Positions 1 through 63,999 of a DNA stretch of 64,000 nucleotides are shown here, piece after piece. Under the pieces are notes generated by a model, which saw only the letters and a program-made list of their open reading frames with translations, searched no databases and was not told the origin of the DNA. Position 1 is the stretch's first letter. The number at the start of each line of letters is the position of its first letter. Position numbers and translations under genes: made by a program. The DNA is from Gracilaria domingensis (Eukaryota; Rhodophyta; Florideophyceae; Gracilariales; Gracilariaceae), in the NCBI GenBank assembly GCA_022539475.1, contig VCMS01000125.1:62001-126000 (forward strand), read 5' to 3'.

Positions 1-3000
1 GCGACCACGACCGGTCCCGCGACCGCGCCCACGGCCACGAGAGGTAACAGGAGACGACGCTGAACCTCCACGACCAGAGGACACCGACATAGGACCGGCG
101 AAGCTTCCGCCTCCGCCGCTAGCTGCGCTCGCTGGCGCACCACCACTTGGTAATGGAGTAGAGGGAGAAGGCCCTACCGGGGTGCCGCTGCTAATTACCA
201 GCATGGTATTCGCAGAACCAGTGGGTGGATAGAAGGAAGGCGGCAAGCTAGTCTGAGGGATACCGCCAGAGGTTGGAGGAAGAGCAAGACCGCTGGACGG
301 CCCTGCACCAGGGGTCACACCAGGAGATGCCTCAACTTCAGAAGGCCCAGGACCAGCAGGCGGCATCGGAGCGCTGGACGACGACGGAAGCGGAGCCGAG
401 CGGAAACCAGTTTGGAAACCACTTGGCGCTCCCACCCCAGTACTGGCTGGAGGGAGAGGAACGTTATGAGGACCAAGCGGTGTGTGGAAGGGAGCCGAAG
501 GATCTGCACCAGGGGGTCCACCGCGCGGTTGATAGGTTCTGAGGCCGCCAAAGCCCACAATTTGGGTCACAGGCGTCTGAGACGCAGCCTGCGAAAAGTT
601 TCAACCCGTATGCCCCTGAGGGACATACGGGTTGAAACTTTCCACAGGGGGTCGATGCAGGGGCGCATGGCCTTCCACGAGGTTGCTCAACTGACCGACA
701 TAGGCAGTCACCTCAGGGTAGATATTGCGCTGGAAGTAGTCGCGGAACTGCCGCAACTCGTTAGTGCACCGCTCATGGTGAGCGACCACTGGGAGCAAGT
801 TTGTCAAGGTACCCACCGCGGTGAGGATGTCGTTCGGACCAGGACGGTTGAAGTGCACCATCGAGGCGTGGTTGAGACGCGCCAGAGCGCTTCTAATCGC
901 ACCGCTGTCACCACCTGGAGGTACCGGGTTCACCGGGAGAGACTGAAAACCAATGCGGAGAGGCCCATGGGTCTCCCGGCCGGGGGGATGCGCCGCTGCG
1001 TGAGCATTGGGAGGACCACTAGGGGTGGGAGCCGCCACACTGGTAGGAGGAGTGGCCTGTACGGGAGCCGACGGAGGTAATGCAGGGCACTCATAGTTCT
1101 CGGCGGCCACCATCATGGCATCGTCGTTGCGAAAAGGGTCCTCGCCAGCCACATGCTGGTTCTGCAAGGGCACTATGCTCTGTACCTCAGGGTCATAGAC
1201 GTCCCAACCTTGATGGCCGCCCCAATTGTGGTTACTCACAGCCGTGAAGTAGTTGTCCAGCTGCTGAGCAGTATACTTCGTACCTTCCACAATGGCGGCA
1301 AGTCTCATCGCACGAATGTCTCCAATGTCATCAGCCGGAATGTAGAAAATACGACCAATTGGTTGAGTACGGCTGATGCCGACGCCCTTGTCAGGACAGC
1401 GGGTGTCCCAGGTCAAACCCTCCGCAGAGGTCTGAAGGGCGAGAATCGCCACCATAACGGCCCATTCGCTGCGCGCAACCTATCAAACGGCGTACGCATT
1501 GTTCCTTTCGAGGACGATGCTAGTTCCAAAGTACGCTAGAACCGGAGGGGTCAGCACCTTCAACCACTGGCAAACTTCGTAGTGATCCAACCAAGACGGT
1601 CTGCTCACATACCACGACGGGCGGTTCTGGTCGCTCTGCGAACAGTGTTCAACGTTGTGGAAGAGGTGCATCGTACGCGTACGACTGTGACGGTGACGGA
1701 CACGGCTCTCGGCCATCGCATCGGTCGCCCACCTGCCACGGTCTTTCCAGTAGTTGGTGTCTAGAGGGCGTTTGAGCGCCACGTAATCGAGATTAACCTC
1801 GAAGTTACCAGTTGGTTCGTCCAGAAAGTGAAGAATGTCGACCACGCGGCGGAAGTAATGGACCTCCCCGTCGCATCGGATGAACGGGAGGTCCGACGGA
1901 ATGGCCATTGGAATGTAGTAGAGGAACTTCGTGTGCCTCTGCCGTGCGTGGAAGCACTGAGGACGACTAAATTGGTGTTGCTTCTCACCCTGGCGGGGTG
2001 GCGGAGGAGCCATCGGCACCGCCTCCAACCGGCGACAATCCCAGCGGGGAATGGCGCTGTACTGCGAGAGTGCCATGTGGCGGAAACGCAAAGGACAGAA
2101 CGAGGTGCTTATAGGAAACGGTCAGTTCCCAAGAGCGACCATTTCGGCGGAGATGTCGGACAACCGAGCGCCATAATGGGCGTGCGGCTGCCCGTGCGTC
2201 CTGTTAAGGTCGTGCGGGGTGAGCCTCTGAGACTCCACCGTTCCGGCGCTCGCCAAAGGGTTGATGTTGCTGGGACCAGCAGCGGCGGCATAAGGATCGT
2301 AGCCGCCGCCGCGACCATATGGATCCTGACGCGCACGCGTGCTAGCCCGAGTGGTAGGCTTGAAGATACCGCGGCCACGGCCGCGGGCTACCCCAGGGGT
2401 CTTCCCGGACATCCTCGACGTGGCGAGAACCTCTCGAACCGAGCGGACAGCCTGTGGGGACGGAGGTATCTCAGATGTGGAGCCGCCCCTTATAGGGTCG
2501 TAATGCGGCTCTTCGCGCACCACGAGGATCTCGGCTTCCGGAGCGTCGGCGCCCGATGGAAGCGAAACCGAGGTACCGGTTTGGGATTGGCCACGGCGAC
2601 GGGGGGACTCCACCAACCGGTAATCGGGCGCATAAGGAGCGCCTGCATCGGAACGGCGCCCCGCAGCGGTCAGGACGGGGGACACGCAGGCGTCATCCTC
2701 GTCCACGCAACGCTCGAAGGTCATAGACCACCCCGTAGGGGAGGTCGACCGTTCACCCATGAGGTTAGAAGTTGTGCAGCGGAAACGCCACGAAGGACGG
2801 AAACCAAGACGGTGAGATACGCCAAGCGCACGACCTCAACGGGGCGAACCGACACCGAGGAGCGCTCACCGAACCAGGAGGGTCAGTGAAAGCCGGCGCC
2901 AGGCGAAATTCAGCCGTGAGGCACCACTTGGAATTAACAACCCCGGGCGTTGGGGCGACGTCGACAACGCCGGTCGCGGAAGATCACGGCAACCAAGAGG

Positions 3001-3300
3001 AAAGAGGCACAGCTGCGCAACCCGCTGAGGGAGGTACCACTGAGGGGTGGAGGTGCAGCCAGGAACCGACGACGGGAAGAAGAGGCGGACGACCAATGGG
3101 TACACTCGGCGCCGAATCGAAGGCCGCGAAAGGGGGTGAGGAGCCGATAGTTCACCCGGAGAAGCCACTGTGGGCGAAGGCACCAATAGGTGACGGAGCG
3201 ATGCGAAGACGCCGATCACTACAAGATGGCTCAGGTCGCACATTCGTTGCGCAGAGCACGCCGACCGATTATGGATGTCCCGGGCGCAGAGCGCGACCAC
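1..3300 (-). pseudogene. Retroelement ORF, decayed copy 1 (homologue of the 58.3-60.4 kb ORF)
   Basis: One minus-strand reading frame runs from about 3300 to the window edge, broken by in-frame stops at 2866, 2122-2124, tandem TGA TAG at 1480-1485, and TGA at 632-634. The part from 2091 to about 1080 aligns with the plus-strand ORF at 58268-60358: shared marks are a GE[VI].Y segment, an R-P-L about 30 residues later, an EVC...PP.L.Y.G block, then EWA just after the stop, and a Y.YDP-like block. The frame stays open from 631 down to base 1 and encodes a Gly/Pro/Ser-rich tract ending in RG repeats, which suggests RNA binding. If it matches the second copy, it is the antisense ORF of a Ty3/gypsy element whose pol lies left of the window on the plus strand. 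A gag identity cannot be excluded. I know no named family for it. Confidence 0.6.
595..641. repeat. Perfect 18-bp inverted repeat with 11-nt loop
   Basis: Arms 595-612 and 624-641 are exact reverse complements around the loop at 613-623. On the minus strand the second arm supplies the in-frame TGA (632-634) that interrupts the retroelement ORF. Beyond it the same frame is open to the window edge. Confidence 0.85.
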
Positions 3301-7783: not shown

Positions 7784-8262
7784 CGGGCGCGCCGAACGCG
7801 CCGCTGGTTGGCGCGCGCTGAGATGGGGCGGCCAGCGGCGCTCGACAGCTTGGGGCTCCCGCTCGCAGCTGCTGCTTGGCGCGAAGCGACGCGCCCTGCG
7901 ACGCGGCAGCGACGCCCAGCTTGTCTTCGCCGCGCATCTTCTCGCGCGAGCCTCGCGCCGCGCGCGACAGGCACAGTGCTGCTACCACCCGTCGCCAACC
8001 TTCTCCGCGCGCGTCGTCTCCGCCTCCCACACGCGTCGCAGCCGCTCGGTCGTGAGACTTGTGCTCGTTTGTTTCACGGTTTGCAACAACTTGTCACAGC
8101 GCCACGTAAACTATGCACCCCCACCTCATATCAGCACTGCCGCCTCACCGCTGCCATCAACTTAATCACTGCCACCCGAGCCCCACCTGAGCGGAGAACG
8201 TTCCCCCACCTTCGTCGTCACCACTTCCAGATGTTCTCAACTTGTGCAGTGCAATCTCCACC

Positions 8263-9531
8263 ATGAGTCCTCCTGCACTATCACTTTTGGTTTTCGCTGC
8301 CCTCTTCACGCTCGTCGTCGCACATGGTTGTATGAATCACCCCAATCAAAGAGGCGGTCTCGCTCTTCTTCCGTTCATGCCCTATTCCGTTGACGAACGT
8401 GCCCCGAAGGACTACTGGCTGCTCTTTCCCGCAGGGAACAAAGCCTCCCGTCCTGGGAGCGCTCTGAAGAGCCAGATTTATGCCGCCGGGCCGCGAGGGT
8501 GGACACCTTACAATCCATACAGCCCGTCCTTGCAGTGGAGATATGGCGTGTGCGGTGATCGCCTCGGCGGACCGCAGCATCATCTACGCGGTGGAATGTT
8601 TTACCACCGCGGGCGTATTGTTGCTTCATATACACAAGGTGACGTTCTTGGCGTTGGAATGTCCATAGTCACTCACCACAACGGTTTCGTTGAAATGCAT
8701 GTCTGTGACGTCTCCAGATGCGGCGGTGAGATAAGCCGAGAATGCTTTCTCAAGGGTGCGTGCGTGCAGCTCAAGCGAGCATACCACCCTGAATGTGAGA
8801 GTGGCAAAAGTCCGCATTGCGGGCCTACAGACCGACGTTATCCCGGCCGTTGGTATCTTCCCTGTCGCTCTGGTGCAAGCTGGGATGATTTTCGGCCGCA
8901 CTACGCTACTTTTCGTCTTCCGAAGCATTTTCACTGCCAGCATTGCGTTCTTCAATGGTATTGGGTCACAGCGAACACCTGCAACCCCCCAGGAATGTTG
9001 GATTACTTCGATGGACCTAACCGTCCTCACTGGGGCACATGTTCGGGACAGGGCGGAGCCCGAGGCGGAGTATCTCGAAACAAACCACCATGCGGTCGAT
9101 ACAACTTTCCTGAAGAATATGTTCAGTGCGCGGACATCAGGATAGATTCCGTATCCCGCGCACGGAGTGCGCAGCAAGGCGATGGAGGGCCCTCCCCATC
9201 TCCCACCCCGCTTCCTCGCAAGCACATTGCGAAACTTGTGCTATGGGCTGATGGATCACAGTCGCGCGAACTTGTTACTGGTTCGGAAATAAACATTGGT
9301 ATGTATAAACGGGTTGGCGTGGAAGCAATTCCAGTCGCTGGATCTACAGTTACTTCCGTCGTGTTCTACATGGACAACAGGAGAGTGAACAGGGACTACG
9401 CGGCGCCTTTCTTTTTAGAAGGGAGCAATCGTGGCACATGGTTGTACAATGTTCCAATCGGCAGATATATTCGCTTCGCTGCTAAAGCAAACGGCGAATG
9501 GGTGCACGCGGATGTCAAGTTCTTCAAATGA
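8263..9531 (+). CDS. Secreted AA15-like lytic polysaccharide monooxygenase
   Basis: A predicted copper-dependent oxidase that cleaves insoluble polysaccharide such as chitin or cellulose outside the cell. The start at 8263 sits in a CACCATGAG context and gives a clean 20-residue signal peptide ending VVA, so the mature protein begins with His21 (HGCM), the first histidine-brace ligand. Diagnostic features follow in order: YGVCGD, a second brace His in VTHHNGF, the Cys pair HCQHCVLQWYW typical of AA15, and EEYVQCADI near the catalytic domain's end. An in-frame ATG seven codons upstream is possible but spoils the signal peptide. After a Ser/Pro-rich linker, the last 100 residues look like a bacterial-Ig-type beta domain (VVFYMDN...), perhaps for wall binding. 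422 residues, no intron. Substrate unknown. Confidence 0.8.
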   Translation: MSPPALSLLVFAALFTLVVAHGCMNHPNQRGGLALLPFMPYSVDERAPKDYWLLFPAGNKASRPGSALKSQIYAAGPRGWTPYNPYSPSLQWRYGVCGDRLGGPQHHLRGGMFYHRGRIVASYTQGDVLGVGMSIVTHHNGFVEMHVCDVSRCGGEISRECFLKGACVQLKRAYHPECESGKSPHCGPTDRRYPGRWYLPCRSGASWDDFRPHYATFRLPKHFHCQHCVLQWYWVTANTCNPPGMLDYFDGPNRPHWGTCSGQGGARGGVSRNKPPCGRYNFPEEYVQCADIRIDSVSRARSAQQGDGGPSPSPTPLPRKHIAKLVLWADGSQSRELVTGSEINIGMYKRVGVEAIPVAGSTVTSVVFYMDNRRVNRDYAAPFFLEGSNRGTWLYNVPIGRYIRFAAKANGEWVHADVKFFK

Positions 9532-52680: not shown

Positions 52681-54386
52681 GTGAGCTCGTAGATGTGAAT
52701 GAAAATAAGTATGAACTGCACGGCGACTTAGGGTATGACTGGCATCCGGTTTCCAAACTGCACCAAGCGGCGAATATCAGAGAGAGAATTATCCAAATGG
52801 GTTTTGGCCTTCTTCTCCTTTCACCGCTTTGATGCAAACTTCTCATTTTTTCGCTTCTTCCTCTTGGCCAAAGCATCCAGCACCTGATCGCTCTTCAGAT
52901 TAGCACCCGTTTTGGTATCAATTCGAATATTATCACTCCCAACAACGTTAGCATCGCAGAAGAAAGACCCAGTCGAGTTTTTATAACATGAAAACACCTC
53001 ATGTAGTGATGGAGAGTTTTCCTTGTCAGCACAGGAACTCTATTCCTGCGTTTCAACAACTGCCGTTCGCTATCGGTCCACGTACGTACTGATCTCTTCA
53101 AACCGGACATAATGTTACTTCTTGTAGCAGCTCTGTCGTAGGCGTCTGTGAAGCAGGGTGCTTCATCGAAACTATCTAAATTTGACTTCAGCTGCGCAGC
53201 ACGCTAAACTGTTTCGTGTAAGTGGGATTTAAATGAGGAGAAGACACCCACATCTAGTGGTTGGAGGCGGTTTGGTGTATGGGCAGGGACTCCAATCACC
53301 GCTACGTTTGATTCTCGAAGAAGAGATAAAGCTTCAAACAGTACGTATGCACTATAACCATCAAGCGCTTTTTCTTCAGGTTTCCTGAATATCGCAACCT
53401 CTTGAACGAATTTAACAACCCAATCCGCAAATATTGTGCAGCGTGCTCCAGCCAGATCTCGTTGACATGGATGACAACGCATGAGATCAGAGTTCAACGA
53501 CAGGTATTCTTGATTAACCTTTCGGTACTTTGCCAATTTCCTTAGTAGACCACAACGAACGTCATGGTGTCCCCGGCTGCAGACACAACAGGCATCAATG
53601 TAACATGCTCCAGTGCCTCCTTGTTTTTCACCATGTTCTTTACCAGCCTTGCAGAAGATGGACCAATAGCCTTCCGGATGCTTCTGTTCACAATTTTTTT
53701 AAAACTTATTCCTGTCTGGTCGATGTTCCGATGAGGGTTATCGATGTTGCGGGGATCCATTGCGGCTTTGAGGCGAGCAATATGTTTCAACAAGTTCTCC
53801 TTGCTCATTGCGCGTACTCGTCGTTCGTTAATGAATTGCACAGATTTACATGTAAGGACCGAGTGCTCTCGCGGAAAGTACAGCATCCACCTTGGTCCCG
53901 GCCTTACTGTGGTGCAGAACCCAGCGACGAAAATTACAGGCAAAGACAGTTTAGACCTCCCTCTTGTTTGGCTGCACAGCAGTAGAGCGCCCTTACAAAA
54001 TAACACAGATAGGCCCGGCGTAACTCCGGTGTCAACCCTTCCCAATGTTAGAAAGTGCAAAGCGGCAAAAAGAACACGTCCAGCGGTAGAACAAACACGA
54101 CACTGTTGAAAATGACGTCCTATTAGTGAGAAAAGTACGCTAAAGATGACGGCGACGACACTCAATAGCGGTGAAGATCCATGCGAGTGGTCAAACTAAA
54201 TCAAAGTAAACACTGGCACTCTCACACGCTCTATCTGTCCGATAAAACCACAAATGAAAAACCCACTCACAAAAAGAAACATTCAATAGCGGTGGTTCAG
54301 TTTGAGTTGTCGCAAGGAGGATAGTGCTCACTACACAAGTTGCGAGCTCTCCCGATAGAGTTTACTACACACCAAAGGTAGATGAT

Positions 54387-54654
54387 TGTTGAGAGACTGA
54401 AACGCATGCATGGAACACTGTGGTGCCGGACGTTGTGCTGCACTCTGAGCAGCACGGACAGTCACGAAAGTGGATACTTGCGTTCCAAACGGACTGCGAG
54501 CAAGCACACAAATTACAAGCAAGTTGATATTTGTGTGACTTGCTTGCTGGAAGCTAGAGCTAGATAAGTACTAGTAGCTCGACTGAAAGTAAACTGTGAT
54601 CGAGCTACGAGCTTGACAACCCCTTGTGAGACCCACCGTTCTACCTTTTCTACA
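54387..54654 (+). repeat. Copia 5' LTR
   Basis: 268 bp, TGTTG...TACA. It differs from the 3' LTR at two positions only, both G/A, so the insertion is recent relative to its host LTR. Confidence 0.95.
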
Positions 54655-56202: not shown

Positions 56203-56330
56203 TTCAGGATGAACACTCAGACGAAATAGGACACAGCACTTCGCTTTGTTGTTTCATTCAAGATCAGGAATACACAGACGCCTCTGTGAGCTGTTTGGAA
56301 TACCCTTGGCCCGTTTGGATCGAGAGGGAG

Positions 56331-56598
56331 TGTTGAGAGACTGAAACGCATGCATGGAACACTGTGGTGCCGGACGTTGTGCTGCACTCTGAGCAGCACG
56401 GACAGTCACGAAAGTGAATACTTGCGTTCCAAACGGACTGCAAGCAAGCACACAAATTACAAGCAAGTTGATATTTGTGTGACTTGCTTGCTGGAAGCTA
56501 GAGCTAGATAAGTACTAGTAGCTCGACTGAAAGTAAACTGTGATCGAGCTACGAGCTTGACAACCCCTTGTGAGACCCACCGTTCTACCTTTTCTACA
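56331..56598 (+). repeat. Copia 3' LTR
   Basis: 268 bp, 266 identical to the 5' LTR, preceded by polypurine GAGAGGGAG and followed by ATGAT. Confidence 0.95.
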
Positions 56599-57434
56599 AT
56601 GATCAGAGTCGATCACTCGGTTGTTCTGTTCACTTCTCCAACTCTGGGTTGAGATCAACCGGCTCAGTAGTGTAGCCGGTCTACCCACTGTAAGTGAGGT
56701 GCATTAGATATTCTACAATAAATATCTAAATGCCCCCAAAGAATGGGTGCAAACCTTCCACGCGTGTGTGACTTACCGGCTATGCCGTGCACATCATAAC
56801 TTCTATTTTTAATACTTATTACACTCATGAAGGGGTCAACCTCACCTCTTATTCATACTGTGTGTCACCATCGCCCGAGATGGCCGCGTATACTATGGAT
56901 CGCGATGGCGACTAAGTTCTGGAAAACGCGTTGCACTTCACTTTTATCTTTGCAACAGCGTTTGATCTCTTGATGGCGAAGATTGAAATATTTAGACACA
57001 TAATGTTCCATGAAATTGAAGAGCGTAATTCGTGTGAAAGGCATCTTCATTCGTGCGTAGCGTTTGACGGCTTTCGTTCTGAGCTCTTCTTCCTGGGATG
57101 TAGACACTGGCAGTCTCTCATGCTTTTGGAGGCTACTTTTCATATATACAAGCTTGTTGGGTTCTTCTTGTGAACAGTTGTTGCTTCATTGCTGCCTGTG
57201 GCGGTTAGACGAAGTAAAATGAATGTAACAGTTCTCCACGACCTCGGATAGCGATGAACCGTTCTCCCATAGACGTATCATATGGCATCTTTCAGAATCG
57301 GGAAAGTATACCGGCTTTGGGAGCTCTCTTCGTTGACTATGTCTACTGCTGTTGATTGAGACGTGTGGATGCGGTCGTCCGATGTTTGATGGGATATAAA
57401 GGCAGCCATGCTTGGCTGTGGTGTGATCAAAGGC

Positions 57435-58251
57435 TGTTGTGCAAAACCCAGTGATGGGAAAAGACACAAAAAGGCGGTTCAGACCCTCTCTCAAGAGGCG
57501 AGCACAGCAGTAGAGCGCTCCCCCAGGTACGGCACGGCAATGCCGGGTGTAAAACCAAGGTCGACCCTTCCCAAGTAATGGAGGGAGCGAAGCGGCGAAG
57601 AAGACGCGTCCAGCGGTAGAAAACACACGACACAAGTCGGCAGTAGCGTCACGTGCGTAGCACGCGGTACCCACGAATGTGACGATGACACGCGAGAGCG
57701 GTAATAGCCCACGCGAGTGTGTCGAGCCACGAACGGTATGCACCGGTACACCAAGTAGTGCTACCTGTATAACAGGGACAGAAATAAACAAAACACACAC
57801 AAAGTAAACACGCGAAAGCGGTAGTGGTGTTAATGATGCCGCGAGGCGGATGATGAACCCTGCACAAGGTGTCGACTCTCCGAGAGGAGGATATCGGTCA
57901 CCAAGGGTGAAACATCAGAGCCGAGCACTCGGTTGTTCTGTTTACTTCCCCAGCACTGGGTGCAGCTCAACCTACTAAGTACTGCAGTAGGTTGGCCCAC
58001 TGTCAGTGTGGTACAGCAGATATGCTACAAATATCTACTTCAAATACCCCAATGAATGGGTGCAAACCTCCCACACCTGTGTGACTCACCTGCTAGGCCG
58101 TGCACCTCATAACACTAACTCTAATATTAAGTATACCCAGGAATGGGCTGATCTTACCAGTTATTCATACTGTGTGCCAGCACCTCCCGGCATCGCCGTG
58201 CATATTATGAGTCGCATCAGCGAAGAAGTCCCGCAATCGCGTTGCACTACA
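57435..58251 (-). repeat. Ty3/gypsy 3' LTR of the right-hand chromovirus
   Basis: 817 bp TG...CA, same family as the solo LTR at 53908-56940. Read on the minus strand, its first TG is directly preceded by AAGGAGGGGGAAA (58252-58264), a textbook polypurine tract, so it is the 3' LTR of an element oriented leftwards. Read on the plus strand, no primer-binding site follows it. Confidence 0.8.
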
Positions 58252-58267
58252 TTTCCCCCTCCTTAGG

Positions 58268-60358
58268 GTGCGAGTCGACCCCGCGAGTGGTTTCGCTTTC
58301 CTCCTCTGGAGTGCATTTAAGCACATTGGCATGACGGTCTCCAATCCGGCCTCCCCGGTCTCTTCTAACGTCGACACCGGTCAATCCCTCTCCACGCGGA
58401 CTGCGGTCGTGTCTCCTCCGATACCTCGGCGCGCTCTCCCTTCTCTCTCGCTTCCAGCGCTTTTGTTTCTTCCTCGCGCGCTTCCTGCGATGCCGAACCC
58501 GAATCAGGGTAGCAACCAACCGCCTGGCGGGTCTCAGAACCAATACGTTGGTGGTTTCGCTGGGCCGCCACACCCTTCCTTCTCTGGAGTGTCTCCCTCA
58601 CAGCCGTCTTCCGCTGGCGTTCCGTTTCCGCAACCGATCAATCCTGGATTTCACACGGCGCCTCTTCCCCAGACGGGTGGTCAACTTCCGCCCCCGGCGT
58701 CTGTACCGCAGTGGAACTGGATCGCCCCTACCGTCCCGGTCCAACCGGTAATCAACCCGCATGCGGGCGCGTGGGCATCGTATGACGAACTCGACAACGT
58801 CGACCCTCGCAGAAATCCCACACCGTTCTTACGGGCTCGGTGGTTTCATCCGCAAGGCGTGACCAATCGTTCCCTCGTCGAGGCGTATGCCGATGGCAGT
58901 GTTCACCTCCCAGAAGACGTGCACGTCTGGATGACGATGACGTTCGACTGGCATTACCGGATTACCGTGCCTACCAACGCGCTCGTCCACCATCGTGGTC
59001 AGTCGCACAACTCCGCTCGGGCGGCCATGGTCCGCGTAGCGCCCATGCGAATGTTTCGCACGTACTCAGAGCGCCCGATTCCGGCGAACTTCCGTTTCGA
59101 CGTGGCCTTCTTCCGAACACTCGGCGAAATCCAATATGGAGAGAATCTTGCCCGGCTCGCCGGTGTGGTGGAGCGTTATCAGAACGTCCCCGTTCACCAG
59201 GATCTCCTGTGCTGGACCCGTCCGCTCCTGCGTGCAGAATTTCGGTATCTCCCACGCGTGCCGCGGTCCAACTACCTTCAAACAATGATCCGTCCCGAAC
59301 GACGTGCCCGCTCCCGATGGGGTTACCTTATCCCGTATCAAAACACGGAGTCAAACCGGATTCGTCCGCGCCACATGCGTGGGAGATATGTTCCTCTCCC
59401 CTTTGTGTGGGCGTCCGTGGAGGTCTGCCGTGGCTGTTACCTGGAACTCCCCCCCTGTCTCACGTATGGGGGTAGTAGGCTCGTGACAAACCCGTTTACG
59501 GGATGGTAGAGCGTTTTCCTCACGGAGTGGGCGGCGCGAACAGCGGTGTATCTCCTCAGCGAGGTGTATGACCAGTATCGACTGTGGTTCATTCCCCCGC
59601 GCTTGCGGCAACTCATCCGAGCCTTGGATCTCACTATCTCTTTTGGCGGTAATGGAAACTTCTCGGAAGTCATGTGCCTCTTGCGAGTGATTGATGGGGT
59701 CGACTGGAGTCAGGTTCCTCTTTCGCAGAGCGCGCGGGACGAAGGCGATTCCGCTATTGATCGGTCTCCGGGTCGCAGGTCCCCACTGTCGGGTGATTAC
59801 ATCTATTACGACCCCTGGACACGGGTGCCGATTACCAACGCCGAGGCGGAGCTCCTTCGGAACGCCGAGCGAGTCATCCCTCCGGGGCACCCTACGGGCT
59901 TCATCATAACTGATGAGTTCTTCCACCCTGTTTGGGACCAGAACATCATGGTTGGCGACGCTCCCGATGACGGTGACGAGTACGGCGACGACGACTTCAC
60001 GGCAGCTCCAGTGGAGGGGACAGTACCTGCTTCAGCAGTGCCAGGTACCCAAGCGGGTGCTAACGCGGCCTTGTCGAGCCCGGTGAATGTTCCTTCTGCG
60101 CCTCAAGCGGTTCCTGTACCCACACCAGTGGTTGTCTTGACTCCAGAGGAGAGTGCTGCCAATTCTGCGATGGCGGCGTCGGCTGCGGCGAACGAAGCCG
60201 CGAACGCGGGTATCTCTGACGAAGTACGGGCTGCCGTGATTGCTCAGTTCCTCAGCGAGGCTGGTGCTTCCGACGCGGCGTCGGGTGACGTTTCGCAAAT
60301 GCGCGATGCGCTCCTTGCGCAGCTCGCGAACGCGAACAATCAGCCTGGTTCCGAGTAA
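58268..60358 (+). CDS. Antisense ORF of the chromovirus, with one in-frame TAG (copy 2)
   Basis: 697 codons in one frame, interrupted only by TAG at 59507-59509. The N-terminal part is Pro/Ser/Gly-rich (likely ATG 58490, MPNPNQG; earlier ATGs at 58268 and 58331), the middle is a folded-looking region (residues about 170-560, with WFHPQGVTNRSLVEAY, FRTLGEIQYGENL, EVCRGCYLELPPCLTYGG before the stop and EWAARTAVYLL after it), and the tail is acidic then Ala/Pro-rich. It is homologous to the decayed frame at 1-3300, which has stops TGA TAG at the same aligned place. It might be a capsid-like or nucleic-acid-binding protein; no known family is recognised. It could be expressed as two proteins, by stop readthrough, or be a pseudogene. 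Confidence 0.6.
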
Positions 60359-60570
60359 CTCGTGCAACTTCTCCTCCATGGAGTTCCTCCTCGGTACTAC
60401 TCATTAGCTAGGCAGTTGCGGGCTCGTGTAGCGAGCCGCAACATAGTAACGATAACCAGTAAAACTGTGACTTCTCTTGACTTCAAGGCTTCTTTCCTTT
60501 CTCAAGGTACATACTTCATAACTTCTCCCTTTCGGGGTAATTTTCCTCTTACGATTTTCCATTTCTTCTT

Positions 60571-60688
60571 CATAGAGTTCTTCTTTCTCTTCTGAGCTTC
60601 ATTTCCTCTTCACAGAGTTCTCTTCCTCATTCGAGCTCCATTTCCGCTTCACAGAGTCTTCTTCCTCTTTCGAGTGTATCTATCGTCT
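60571..60688. repeat. About three 39-bp tandem repeats
   Basis: Units begin CA[TC]AGAG at 60571, 60611 and 60650 and are TTCCTCTT-rich. They lie between the end of the antisense ORF and the end of pol, so in both 3' regions. On the minus strand they are purine-rich. Confidence 0.7.
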
Positions 60689-60870: not shown

Positions 60871-63800
60871 TTATCCGACCATCGCTTGATGTAGGTTAGC
60901 CGGCAATGCCGTCTTAGTTCGACGATGATACTGCACGATCTCCGATCGGGGTAAGTGCTCCACGGGTTCGTCCGAGTCTCGCGACGGCGGATAGCCATAC
61001 CAGCGTACCTGGTACTGAACGTACCCCTTCGGGTTCCAACTGTGTCTCACAATGTGGTCTACGACGAACTCTTTCGAGTATACGCCCCTCTCGAGCTCTT
61101 CCTGCGAAGGGTCGTCAGCGCGCTGCGGCGGTGCCGTAACTTCGTCACCAGCGGTGATGTGAGCCTCGACTGACGCCTTTGGCGGTGAACGTGTCCTCTG
61201 TTGAGTGTTCGCTTCCCGTTTCCGGGCTTCCTCAAGCAGCTTCGCCGCTTTGGCGGGTCCGCGAACGGCTAGTTCACGCGGTAGTTCCCGTTCTGACGGT
61301 GAAGGCGGACGCGGAGGCGGATTGTTCACCACGGCACGTGCCGGTTCAGGTGAGGACACGCGACGGTTCGCGGTTGTGGCACTGCCATGAGCTGTGATTG
61401 GCCCACTGTGTGGCGCGCGCTGCGCGCCCCAAGATTTGTGGTGCGCAAGCGCTCCTGCAGCTGCAGTGTGCGTTTTCCCTAAATCAGGGCTGTAATCCGT
61501 GTCTCCAACGAGCGGCGCGCCGTCATGACTTAGCGAAACGTCATGACGTGCGACTTGCGACTTCCCCACGGCTGAGTGCAACGGTACACTACCATTACCC
61601 GAACCGGTGTGTGTAATCTTTGCTTCAGCGAGCGTCTTCTCTTCTTCCTGCTCCGCAGTGTCTAAGGTACCGGGATCTGCCGTGACTTCCTTAGCGCGCG
61701 CCCGCGAAGGCAGTATGAGGCGGTCGTCAGCGACGGTTTGCGGCGACTGCGCATCCGGAATACTCCGTGATACAGTATCCAGCTTCGCTGTAGCCGTGCT
61801 CTGCCGAGAAGTCGTGTATTCAACGTCTACTTCCGGCCTTGCCGATGGAACTTCGCGAACGAGAAGATGCTCCGCGTCCTGCGTCCTCGTGACAGTGGGC
61901 GCGTGTTCCAGCGACAATTTCCCAAGCGGGTGAGCGATACTAGTATCCTGGGACAACCTCGAGTCCTTTCGTTGCGTGTTGTATCCTTCCGAAAGGTCGC
62001 GATCCTTCGTAGAAGGTTGTGCATCCTCCGCGGAGTTCTGCGCGACAGCGGCCGACTGCAGCTCGTCCTTCGCGGCCTCAACACGCGAAAGTGGGTGATC
62101 CTTCCCACTGACCGTGGTATCCGTAGCAACTACGTCTTCGACGGTGTCCTGAGGCGACTCCGCCTCCTTTTCATTCTCTTCCCGTGAATCACGGTGCTGG
62201 GACGGTAGCGACACCGGTAATTCACTCTCCGCGACGACGCGTGAATCCTCCTCCCCATCCTTAGGTGGAGCGTTACGGGGAGCAGTCATCACGTCTGTTG
62301 ACGGTGTAATAGACGCTGTGAAACGCGATTTCACCAGCGGTGTATGTTCCGATATCTCGGCTTGCGACGATATAATCGGTACCTCTGCGAGACCCCTTGC
62401 AGGGTGGCGAAGCCCCACAGTAGGTGTAGTGTTCTGCGACGAGAATTCTCGGTTCTGTGTCTGTCTAGCTTCCTGCTGTGAATCCGAAACTACTTCCGTG
62501 TGCACGGTTGGGTCCTGCACAACGCGATCGCGGGAGAAACACTCATGAGCGTCGCCAACTTCCAGTACGACTGTGTCCGTATTCACGCTAATAACGCGGT
62601 ATGGCCCATCAGCGATGGGTGAGACAAAGGCGAGTTTTCTCACTTTCAGTGGCGGTAGTGGTCTCCGTACCCGGGCATCAAAGTTCCGCTTGTAAGCGTG
62701 TTGTGCTTTCGTCATTGACGACCTGGCGACAGGTACCATTGCGGATAACCACTGCTTCCATTGCAAGTAGTAATCCCGTATCGACGGTGACGTATCCAGC
62801 TTTGCTGATGGTTCAACCGCAACTGTCGGTGGTGTCCGTGAGAGCACAAGCTCAAAGGGCGATAAACCAGTTACTCTGTGAACTTGCGTATTATACGCAT
62901 ACGTCACCGTATCCGTGTAGAGATCCCAAGCTTTCGGGTGTTCAACAGTATAAGCCCGCAACGCGGAGAGCATTGTCGGGTTAAACCGTTGGCCTTGCCC
63001 ATTGCATTGGGGATGATACATCGTCGTGAAGAGATTCTTCACGTCGAGTATCCGACAGACATCCTGGAAGAAACGCGCAGTAAATTGCGGACCATTATCC
63101 GAAAGGAGATTGACCGGGGGACCGTAGACCATAACCCAATGGCGAAAGAATGCCTCCGCAACACTGCGTGCTGTAATCGACTTCAACGGAACTGTCCGGA
63201 CTAGCTTACTGAATCTATCCGTAATAACGAGTAAGAACCGATTTCCTCGGGAAGTACGCAAGAACTCACCGAGTATACCGATGGCAATAAACTCCAACGG
63301 CGCCCTTGCGGGGAAAAGTGTTAGTTTCTTCGCATGGCGACGCTGTTTAACTCGCTCGCGAGCACAATGTGTACACGCCTTCACGGTGGTGTAGCAGTCC
63401 AACGCTAACGCGGGCCAGTAGAAATCCCGACGCAGTGTCTTGTATAACCGCTTAGCACCCGGATGGGAAGCCATCCGCGAGTGATGCGAGAGATGCAATA
63501 CCCTTGTTTGTAAGGAGTGAGGAACCACAATCTGTAGGGTAGAACGAACCACTCTGACGATGTGATCTTGTGTGTTGACTCCGAACGGGATGTTAGCACC
63601 ACCATTAATTTGGGCACGTATCTTCGTACAGAACGGGTTTGCCTGCTGCTCCCGCACCATTTCCTCTGGGGTGATTGAGACAAACGTTCCGGATTCCGGT
63701 TCTTCACCGTCTGCGACGAGCAAATCATCACAGATGTCGTCCGACACGATGTCGTAGTCCTCATCACCTTCCTCCATGAGGAAACAGGGGATATCTTCAT

Positions 63801-63999
63801 CCTCGTCATCGACGGGTAAAGCTTCACCTTCCGTTCCTAAACGTGAAAGAGCATCCGCTTGCGCGTTCAAACAACCCTTCTTATAGGTGACCTCGTAGTC
63901 AAACTCGGCAAGCCGAAGACGCCAACGCATTAAACCTCCGGAAGGCTCCGTGACTGACATTAACCAACGCAATGCGGAATGATCCGTATTGACAATCAA
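60871..63999 (-). CDS. Chromovirus pol C-terminal part: RNase H, integrase, chromodomain (partial)
   Basis: At least 1,042 residues, open at the right edge. It begins in RNase H (TDHSALRWLMS, YKKGCLNAQADALSR). Integrase: HHCC zinc finger (LSHHSRMASHPGAKR...CTHCARER), core Asp in VITDRFSKLV (about 260) and Asp in LLSDNGPQF (about 302). The third catalytic position, normally Glu in NGQ.ER.N, is Gln here (NGQGQRFN, about 338). A GPY/F module (GPYRVI, about 464) follows, then about 490 residues of low-complexity charged sequence, and a C-terminal chromodomain (about 975-1025; EFVVDHI, VRWYGY) that keeps the three aromatic cage positions F, W, Y. Chromodomains direct integration to modified histones. 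The E-to-Q change suggests this copy cannot integrate. Confidence 0.9.
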   Translation of the reverse strand: MIVNTDHSALRWLMSVTEPSGGLMRWRLRLAEFDYEVTYKKGCLNAQADALSRLGTEGEALPVDDEDEDIPCFLMEEGDEDYDIVSDDICDDLLVADGEEPESGTFVSITPEEMVREQQANPFCTKIRAQINGGANIPFGVNTQDHIVRVVRSTLQIVVPHSLQTRVLHLSHHSRMASHPGAKRLYKTLRRDFYWPALALDCYTTVKACTHCARERVKQRRHAKKLTLFPARAPLEFIAIGILGEFLRTSRGNRFLLVITDRFSKLVRTVPLKSITARSVAEAFFRHWVMVYGPPVNLLSDNGPQFTARFFQDVCRILDVKNLFTTMYHPQCNGQGQRFNPTMLSALRAYTVEHPKAWDLYTDTVTYAYNTQVHRVTGLSPFELVLSRTPPTVAVEPSAKLDTSPSIRDYYLQWKQWLSAMVPVARSSMTKAQHAYKRNFDARVRRPLPPLKVRKLAFVSPIADGPYRVISVNTDTVVLEVGDAHECFSRDRVVQDPTVHTEVVSDSQQEARQTQNREFSSQNTTPTVGLRHPARGLAEVPIISSQAEISEHTPLVKSRFTASITPSTDVMTAPRNAPPKDGEEDSRVVAESELPVSLPSQHRDSREENEKEAESPQDTVEDVVATDTTVSGKDHPLSRVEAAKDELQSAAVAQNSAEDAQPSTKDRDLSEGYNTQRKDSRLSQDTSIAHPLGKLSLEHAPTVTRTQDAEHLLVREVPSARPEVDVEYTTSRQSTATAKLDTVSRSIPDAQSPQTVADDRLILPSRARAKEVTADPGTLDTAEQEEEKTLAEAKITHTGSGNGSVPLHSAVGKSQVARHDVSLSHDGAPLVGDTDYSPDLGKTHTAAAGALAHHKSWGAQRAPHSGPITAHGSATTANRRVSSPEPARAVVNNPPPRPPSPSERELPRELAVRGPAKAAKLLEEARKREANTQQRTRSPPKASVEAHITAGDEVTAPPQRADDPSQEELERGVYSKEFVVDHIVRHSWNPKGYVQYQVRWYGYPPSRDSDEPVEHLPRSEIVQYHRRTKTALPANLHQAMVG

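What the first reader, a model, noticed from the sequence alone, without database searches (positions are those of the whole stretch)
58268..60358. A 2.1-kb antisense ORF sits between pol and the 3' LTR of a chromovirus
The minus-strand LTR at 57435-58251 has a perfect polypurine tract (AAGGAGGGGGAAA) on its inner side, so it belongs to the same leftward element as the pol ORF. The plus-strand ORF between them is therefore encoded antisense inside the element. Antisense ORFs in this place are known from some plant Tat-lineage elements, but here the element has a chromodomain and the protein matches no family I recognise. A homologue at 1-3300 shows it is a recurrent component and not chance.
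Basis: partly seen in the sequence, partly recalled or inferred. Interest (0 to 1): 0.8.

Follow-up and report, generated by a model that had tools for sequence, protein, structure and literature searches.

The report
Antisense gene in red-algal chromoviruses
Several families of chromodomain-bearing retrotransposons in what is probably a red-algal genome carry, back to front between pol and the 3' LTR, a conserved gene for a protein of unknown family; this arrangement is known from other elements, but the protein family looks new.

Summary
The ORF lies antisense between pol and the 3' LTR of a Ty3/gypsy chromovirus: all 11 same-strand LTR pairs found enclose it so. The window copy is damaged: an in-frame TAG at 59507-59509 splits the ORF, and its own 5' LTR is missing. 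In 19 of the 30 best-scoring copies the frame is open for 710-725 codons. Substitutions avoid amino-acid change. Homologues form at least five groups (A-E) down to about 25% identity, including window 1-2760; in D/E 111 of 112 linked cases are antisense. The ATG lies 79-80 nt from the LTR edge in A, B and C. Pfam, PHROGs and PDB gave no significant match. A subfamily (A', 22 of 41 hits at least 99% identical) has similar pol but an unrelated, ORF-less region after it, so the ORF seems not needed in cis. Best reading: a trans-acting accessory gene, probably read from an antisense start at the 3' LTR; transcription is untested. Antisense ORFs here are a known kind (Grande, Retand, Boty, REM1); the protein family and host look new.

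The parts
57435..58251 (-). 3' LTR (817 bp, TG...CA) of the leftward element
   Evidence: 26 of 30 fetched LTR loci match end to end; solo LTRs C330, C107, C169 carry 5-bp target duplications
58252..58264 (-). polypurine tract AAGGAGGGGGAAA
   Evidence: 70 genome copies against 6 for the reversed control; similar tracts in groups B and C
58252..58330 (+). 79-nt stretch between LTR edge and the antisense ATG, overlapping the PPT; presumed leader of an antisense transcript
   Evidence: 79-80 nt in groups A, B and C, the B and C edges being read from the shared edge motif; transcription not tested
58331..59506 (+). antisense ORF, first part (392 codons from ATG: Pro-rich N-terminus, then conserved core)
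   Evidence: ended in this copy by TAG at 59507-59509
59510..60358 (+). antisense ORF, second part, same frame (rest of core with EWA motif, acidic patch, Pro-rich hinge, C-terminal tail)
60558..60674 (.). tandem repeat, 39-bp unit x 3, in the spacer between pol and the ORF
60871..63999 (-). 3' part of pol: RNase H end, integrase H2C2 and rve, chromodomain at the C-terminus (frame continues beyond the window)
1..2760 (-). broken group D homologue of the ORF, antisense to a plus-strand pol (RT, INT, weak chromodomain) that ends about 120 bp left of the window
   Evidence: open frames of 935-946 codons in many other copies

Best explanation
The ORF is a genuine accessory gene (an antisense additional ORF) of a group of red-algal Ty3/gypsy chromoviruses. 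Shown: its place and orientation inside the LTR pair, an intact frame in many copies, protein-level constraint, homologues in at least five groups, and a homogeneous sister subfamily without it in the 2 kb after pol. Inferred: an antisense mRNA starts in or just beside the 3' LTR and runs towards pol, with a leader of about 80 nt. The protein (617 aa in C, 681 aa in A) then acts in trans, so that ORF-less sister elements can be served by others. Its most likely role is regulation of the element's own expression or of its nuclear pre-integration steps, as proposed in print for antisense ORFs such as Grande gene23 and compared there with HTLV antisense genes. The basis for that role is analogy plus the architecture: no membrane segment in A and C, Pro-rich and acidic tails, RG-rich stretches in group D only.
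For: 11 of 11 LTR pairs enclose it antisense (for C188 the piece beside the LTR is a row). 58 of 70 PPTs have it. 72 antisense and 0 same-strand among 109 pol ends; D/E 111 antisense and 1 same-strand among 145 chromodomain ends. 19 of the 30 best-scoring copies are open for 710-725 codons. Selection: L013 to L027, 27 synonymous, 13 non-synonymous, 0 stop, against 11.9/27.3/0.8 expected, 0 of 2000 trials; pN/pS 0.41-0.48 for the window copy against 8 of 16 open copies. A-C 41% identity; A/B/C against D/E E 5.6e-9. ATG 79-80 nt from the LTR edge in A, B and C. No window above KD 1.6 in A or C. ORF-less A' subfamily, 22 of 41 hits at 99% or more.
Against: No transcript data are on hand. No domain or fold was found: models have mean pLDDT 38 and 29. 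A, C and E proteins are net acidic without RG boxes, which gives no sequence support for nucleic-acid binding there. A' multiplied without the ORF seen in cis, so it may be dispensable altogether. 37 of 109 pol ends and 33 of 145 chromodomain ends have no ORF hit listed, though these searches are capped. Many ORF copies carry stops. pN/pS summed over pairs of open copies is 0.55, only moderately below 1, and the second window piece alone is not significant (p 0.066). One of five control frames also shows apparent constraint.
Confidence: 0.55

Rival explanations
1. The protein is a structural or transport factor (particle, envelope-like or movement-like protein) captured from an unknown virus, not a regulator.
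For: Large, modular, with a conserved core of about 360 aa rich in aromatic residues; no relative outside these elements in the libraries tried.
Against: No membrane segment or signal peptide by hydropathy in A or C, which argues against an envelope; E has one hydrophobic window of 1.81 at the EWA helix. No match to phage-virus families or, for the one protein tried, IMG/VR.
Confidence: 0.22
2. The antisense RNA, not the protein, is what matters (dsRNA or silencing control of gag-pol); the ORF is incidental.
For: Antisense transcripts of LTR elements can be non-coding or feed siRNAs (PMC7264820 part 2). A' keeps a region of at least 2 kb without long frames in the same place.
Against: Amino-acid constraint in the ORF frame; 41% protein identity between A and C where DNA matches only in two short pieces.
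Confidence: 0.1
3. A selfish or decaying passenger gene: once useful, now dispensable, kept only because copies are young.
For: ORF-less A' is a very homogeneous subfamily; many ORF copies carry stops.
Against: Constraint is visible between open copies (27 to 13), and groups as far apart as A and E keep long frames.
Confidence: 0.1
4. A separate plus-strand element nested in the chromovirus, or a chance ORF in GC-rich DNA.
For: The window has many long frames on both strands; one antisense control frame shows a shadow of constraint, 23/15/2.
Against: 11 of 11 LTR pairs; 58 of 70 PPTs; the shadow frame holds 22 stops in L013; the 226-aa frame opposite the ORF shows no constraint.
Confidence: 0.02

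Closest known systems
aORF-3R antisense additional ORFs of plant Ty3/gypsy elements (Grande gene23, RIRE2, Retand ORF with TRP28, PvRetro13)
   Same: [quoted passage not shown] about half of the recently active Retand elements have tandem repeats in this region (PMC11963269, abstract and two sections read) and one array is present here
   Different: Retand is a non-chromovirus lineage; here pol has a chromodomain. No PF04195/TRP28 or SMC match. Host has LHC and phycobilisome linker genes, so probably a red alga
REM1, Chlamydomonas Ty3/gypsy chromovirus
   Same: Algal chromovirus with part of its coding region in reverse frame (one passage in PMC2774666; original paper not held)
   Different: In REM1 the reverse part keeps the GPY/F module and chromodomain; here the chromodomain is on the sense pol and the antisense protein has none
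Boty-like elements of Botrytis with antisense gene brtn
   Same: Gypsy-type element with additional antisense gene (PMC7264820; passage and reference title in PMC8365987)
HTLV HBZ/APH-2
   Same: Antisense gene with a promoter in the 3' LTR (as cited in PMC7264820)
   Different: No bZIP match; no evidence of transcription here; homology not claimed

Membership tests
Ty3/gypsy chromovirus | pol order RT - RNase H - integrase in one frame | tested here: met
   RVT_1 291-420, RNase H 487-615, H2C2 741-798, rve 833-912 in L009:4875-9746
Ty3/gypsy chromovirus | chromodomain at the integrase C-terminus | tested here: met
   PF00385 25.7 bits against cut-off 25.1: a narrow pass; 26.7 bits on the window part. 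The broken D-group pol scores 24.2, just below the cut-off
Ty3/gypsy chromovirus | LTRs TG...CA, PBS, PPT, 5-bp target duplications | tested here: met
   solo LTRs C330, C107, C169 have 5-bp duplications. Pairs C59 and C85 show none and C200 has one mismatch. PBS-like 23-mer after the 5' LTR: 79 hits, 0 control
Ty3/gypsy chromovirus | place in an RT tree among chromoviruses | not tested
   no reference elements on hand
antisense additional ORF (aORF-3R) | antisense, between pol and 3' LTR, inside the LTR pair | tested here: met
   11 of 11 pairs
antisense additional ORF (aORF-3R) | present in most copies | tested here: met
   72 of 109 pol ends in A, 111 of 145 in D/E; not seen in A'
antisense additional ORF (aORF-3R) | transcribed antisense from its own promoter | not testable with these tools
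   no RNA data
Retand TRP28 protein | PF04195 domain | tested here: not met
   no Pfam family at E<=5 in A and E, only an unrelated 0.28 hit in C
REM1 reverse ORF | chromodomain (or PHD) in the reverse ORF | tested here: not met
   (PHD in REM1 is recalled, not from a call)
envelope-like protein | transmembrane segment or signal peptide, sense orientation | tested here: not met
   antisense; no hydrophobic window above 1.6 in A or C, one in E
Gag duplication | similarity to the element's gag | tested here: not met
   hhalign probability 0.3%

The most novel reading that the evidence does not exclude
An old superfamily of antisense-encoded proteins with no known fold, confined to red-algal chromoviruses, works in trans as a shared regulator of several element groups. 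A' is a parasite subfamily that swapped the gene for a non-coding region and multiplied on the protein supplied by its relatives. If so, an antisense gene is a public good among retrotransposons.
Probability: 0.25. Interest if true: 0.75.

Novelty: new variant of a known kind. Interest (0 to 1): 0.5.

Why it matters
The function of antisense ORFs in LTR elements is an open question (stated as such in PMC7264820 and PMC11963269). Here one genome holds many copies of several groups that carry the gene, plus a near-identical sister subfamily (A') in which it was not seen. The need for the gene, and cis against trans action, could therefore be tested by comparing expression and copy dynamics. It also extends the phenomenon to a probable red alga. 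None of the rows listed by my paper searches was such a report by title and start of abstract, but these lists were cut and cover open-licence papers only.

Tried and rejected
Nested plus-strand element, chance ORF and Gag duplication were rejected. An anticodon-arm (half-tRNA) reading of the primer site was considered and dropped: by eye the sequence fits an ordinary tRNA 3'-end site; no tRNA was searched. Structure prediction of the two window pieces, one with a single sequence and one with two, gave no usable model, so no fold search was run. Remote homology: Pfam, PHROGs, PDB by profile and sequence and IMG/VR with the group C protein gave nothing significant for the antisense protein. The A/B/C alignment was too diverse for a collection scan. 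The 3' LTR of A' was not reached, so A' is not proved full-length; its spacing from primer site to pol end matches A in C33 against C45 (8030 and 8028 bp, worked out by hand). The pattern scan of the spacer is a bacterial consensus and was not used. Bdelloid elements with captured ORF3s (PMC5408684, passages) were looked at as a case of modular extra ORFs; the passages shown do not describe antisense genes.

Full report
Setting. The window is C125:62001-126000 of a 77.9-Mb eukaryotic genome. The genome holds light-harvesting proteins (11 hits) and phycobilisome linkers on several contigs (14 hits). By established knowledge of these families this points to a red alga; the species was not identified.

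The element. On the minus strand the window shows pol (RNase H end, integrase, chromodomain), a spacer with a 39-bp tandem repeat, the plus-strand ORF, a polypurine tract and the 817-bp 3' LTR. Pooled LTR searches (40 places scored in each) give 62 places. Eleven same-strand pairs 9.0-12.4 kb long can be made from them, and all 11 enclose the ORF on the opposite strand. In ten the hit starts 18-22 bp from the 3' LTR. In C188 the ORF match is in two pieces, and the one beside the LTR is a row that I left out. Taken singly, 27 of the 62 LTRs have the ORF within 60 bp on the inner side; the rest would be 5' or solo LTRs, or lie by ORF rows not used. LTR identity within four pairs is 790/818, 806/817, 808/816 and 752/772. 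The first of these, C188, has a primer site after its right LTR as well, so it is not a simple single insertion. Five-bp target duplications are seen at solo LTRs C330, C107 and C169. Pairs C59 and C85 lack one and C200 has one mismatch, possibly from recombination.

The window copy is not intact. A TAG at 59507-59509 splits the ORF in frame. Gag similarity to copy C188 stops about 0.5 kb short of where the 5' LTR should be, and there a sequence ending in a second antisense ORF (group B, 39% identical over 317 aa) follows. The claim that ORF and pol share one element therefore rests on the other copies.

Is it a gene? Of the 30 best-scoring copies, 19 have an open frame of 710-725 codons; in 15 of them it is 721 codons, 681 from the ATG, and in L033 (725) the 3' end runs out of frame. 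Between open copies L013 and L027, 40 substitutions fall 27 synonymous, 13 non-synonymous and 0 stop, where random placement of the same changes gives 11.9, 27.3 and 0.8 (0 of 2000 trials). L030 gives 28/15/0. Window against L013 gives 20/24/0 for the first piece (p 0.0095) and 9/9/0 for 100 codons of the second (p 0.066) (all). Of five control frames, four show no constraint; the antisense frame with wobble on wobble shows a shadow (23/15/2, 0 of 500 trials) but has 22 stops. The 226-aa frame on the sense strand opposite the ORF shows none. pN/pS is 0.41-0.48 for the window copy against 8 of the 16 open copies and 0.55 summed over pairs of the 15 distinct ones.

How wide is it? The protein search gives 108 matches in group A (101 of 1095 candidates scored, so a lower bound), 124 with the group B query, which also brings in group C with many near-identical 660-codon frames, and 155 with the group D query, which brings in group E. 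A and C are 41% identical. A/B/C against D/E gives hhalign probability 95.9%, E 5.6e-9 over 202 columns around a shared EWA motif; these are small profiles, but tblastn alone also sees D. Orientation is antisense in A by LTR pairs, in B and C by the PPT/LTR edge, and in D/E by pol: 111 of 145 chromodomain ends have the ORF downstream antisense, 1 same-strand, 33 none listed. For A, 72 of 109 pol ends have it antisense, 0 same-strand, 37 none listed. The ATG lies 79-80 nt from the LTR edge in A, B and C, and the LTR end beside it shares short conserved words.

The protein. A Pro-rich N-terminus, a core of about 360 aa (identity A-C best at aa 301-480), an acidic patch, a Pro-rich hinge and a short C-terminal tail. 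There is no Pfam family for A or E at E<=5 and an unrelated 0.28 hit for C, no PHROG at E<=1, no PDB hit better than E 1.6, no IMG/VR relative of the group C protein, and no relation to gag. No membrane segment in A or C; one hydrophobic window in E. RG-rich stretches occur in D only, and A, C and E are net acidic. The AlphaFold models of the two window pieces (mean pLDDT 38 and 29) are not usable.

An ORF-less sister. Of the 37 A-type pol ends without the ORF, 24 are followed within 400 bp by one unrelated region of at least 2 kb, 50% GC, with no frame above 118 aa. It has 41 hits (40 of 69 candidates scored), 22 at 99% or more. The last 179 aa of pol are about 90% identical to the window's, and pol is open for 1851 codons in C33, C176 and C476. 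The 3' LTR of this subfamily was not reached, so an ORF further on is not excluded. I read A' as loss or replacement, because the ORF was seen with a same-strand pol in 0 of 109 A cases and 1 of 112 linked D/E cases, and with no LTR pair of its own orientation. If A' is complete, the ORF is not needed in cis for amplification. The other 13 of the 37 were not looked into.

Mechanism. Shown: gene, place, constraint, spread, and a homogeneous subfamily without it after pol. Inferred: antisense transcription from the LTR edge and action in trans. The regulatory role is by analogy with Grande gene23 (nuclear, own promoter) and HTLV antisense genes as reviewed in PMC7264820 (parts 1-2 of 3 read) and PMC11963269 (abstract, Background and Discussion read). 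A structural role is the main rival.

Known or new. Antisense ORFs between pol and the 3' LTR are known from plant elements (Grande, RIRE2, Retand, PvRetro13) and fungal Boty-like elements, and the algal chromovirus REM1 has a reverse-frame part. New here, as far as the searches went (open-licence papers, cut listings seen only): this protein family, its presence in a probable red alga, and the paired ORF-bearing and ORF-less subfamilies. A 2012 survey passage reported no retrotransposon chromodomains in three red algae (PMC3350952, passages), while a 2013 abstract names red algae among chromovirus hosts (PMC3605345, start of abstract in the listing).

Noticed in passing
L074:304-2301 (C176:15903-17900) and 40 further hits: A' subfamily: pol like the window element's but an unrelated region without long frames after it; 22 of 41 hits at least 99% identical
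   Followed up: partly
window 60558-60674: 39-bp tandem repeat x3 between pol and the antisense ORF, as described for the pol-3'LTR region of Retand elements
   Followed up: no
window 56602-56940 and 53908-54103: Diverged fragments (75% and 70%) related to the 57435-58251 LTR; perhaps an older related insertion beside the element
   Followed up: no
window 54384-54654 and 56328-56598: Two 271-bp direct repeats, 99% alike, 1.94 kb apart: perhaps LTRs of a short non-autonomous element
   Followed up: no
L010:6871-8637 (C125:134870-136636): Plavaka-type transposase frame (Pfam E 6e-17) just outside the window
   Followed up: partly
window 8242-9531: Protein with weak LPMO_10 similarity (E 7e-4, 20.7 bits, below the cut-off of 23)
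   Followed up: no
window 2122-2760 (minus) and L011:9469-9999: Group D antisense protein has RG-rich stretches (15 RG/GR against 3.9 expected in the C-terminal piece, 10 against 5.0 in the N-terminal one), unlike A, C and E
   Followed up: partly
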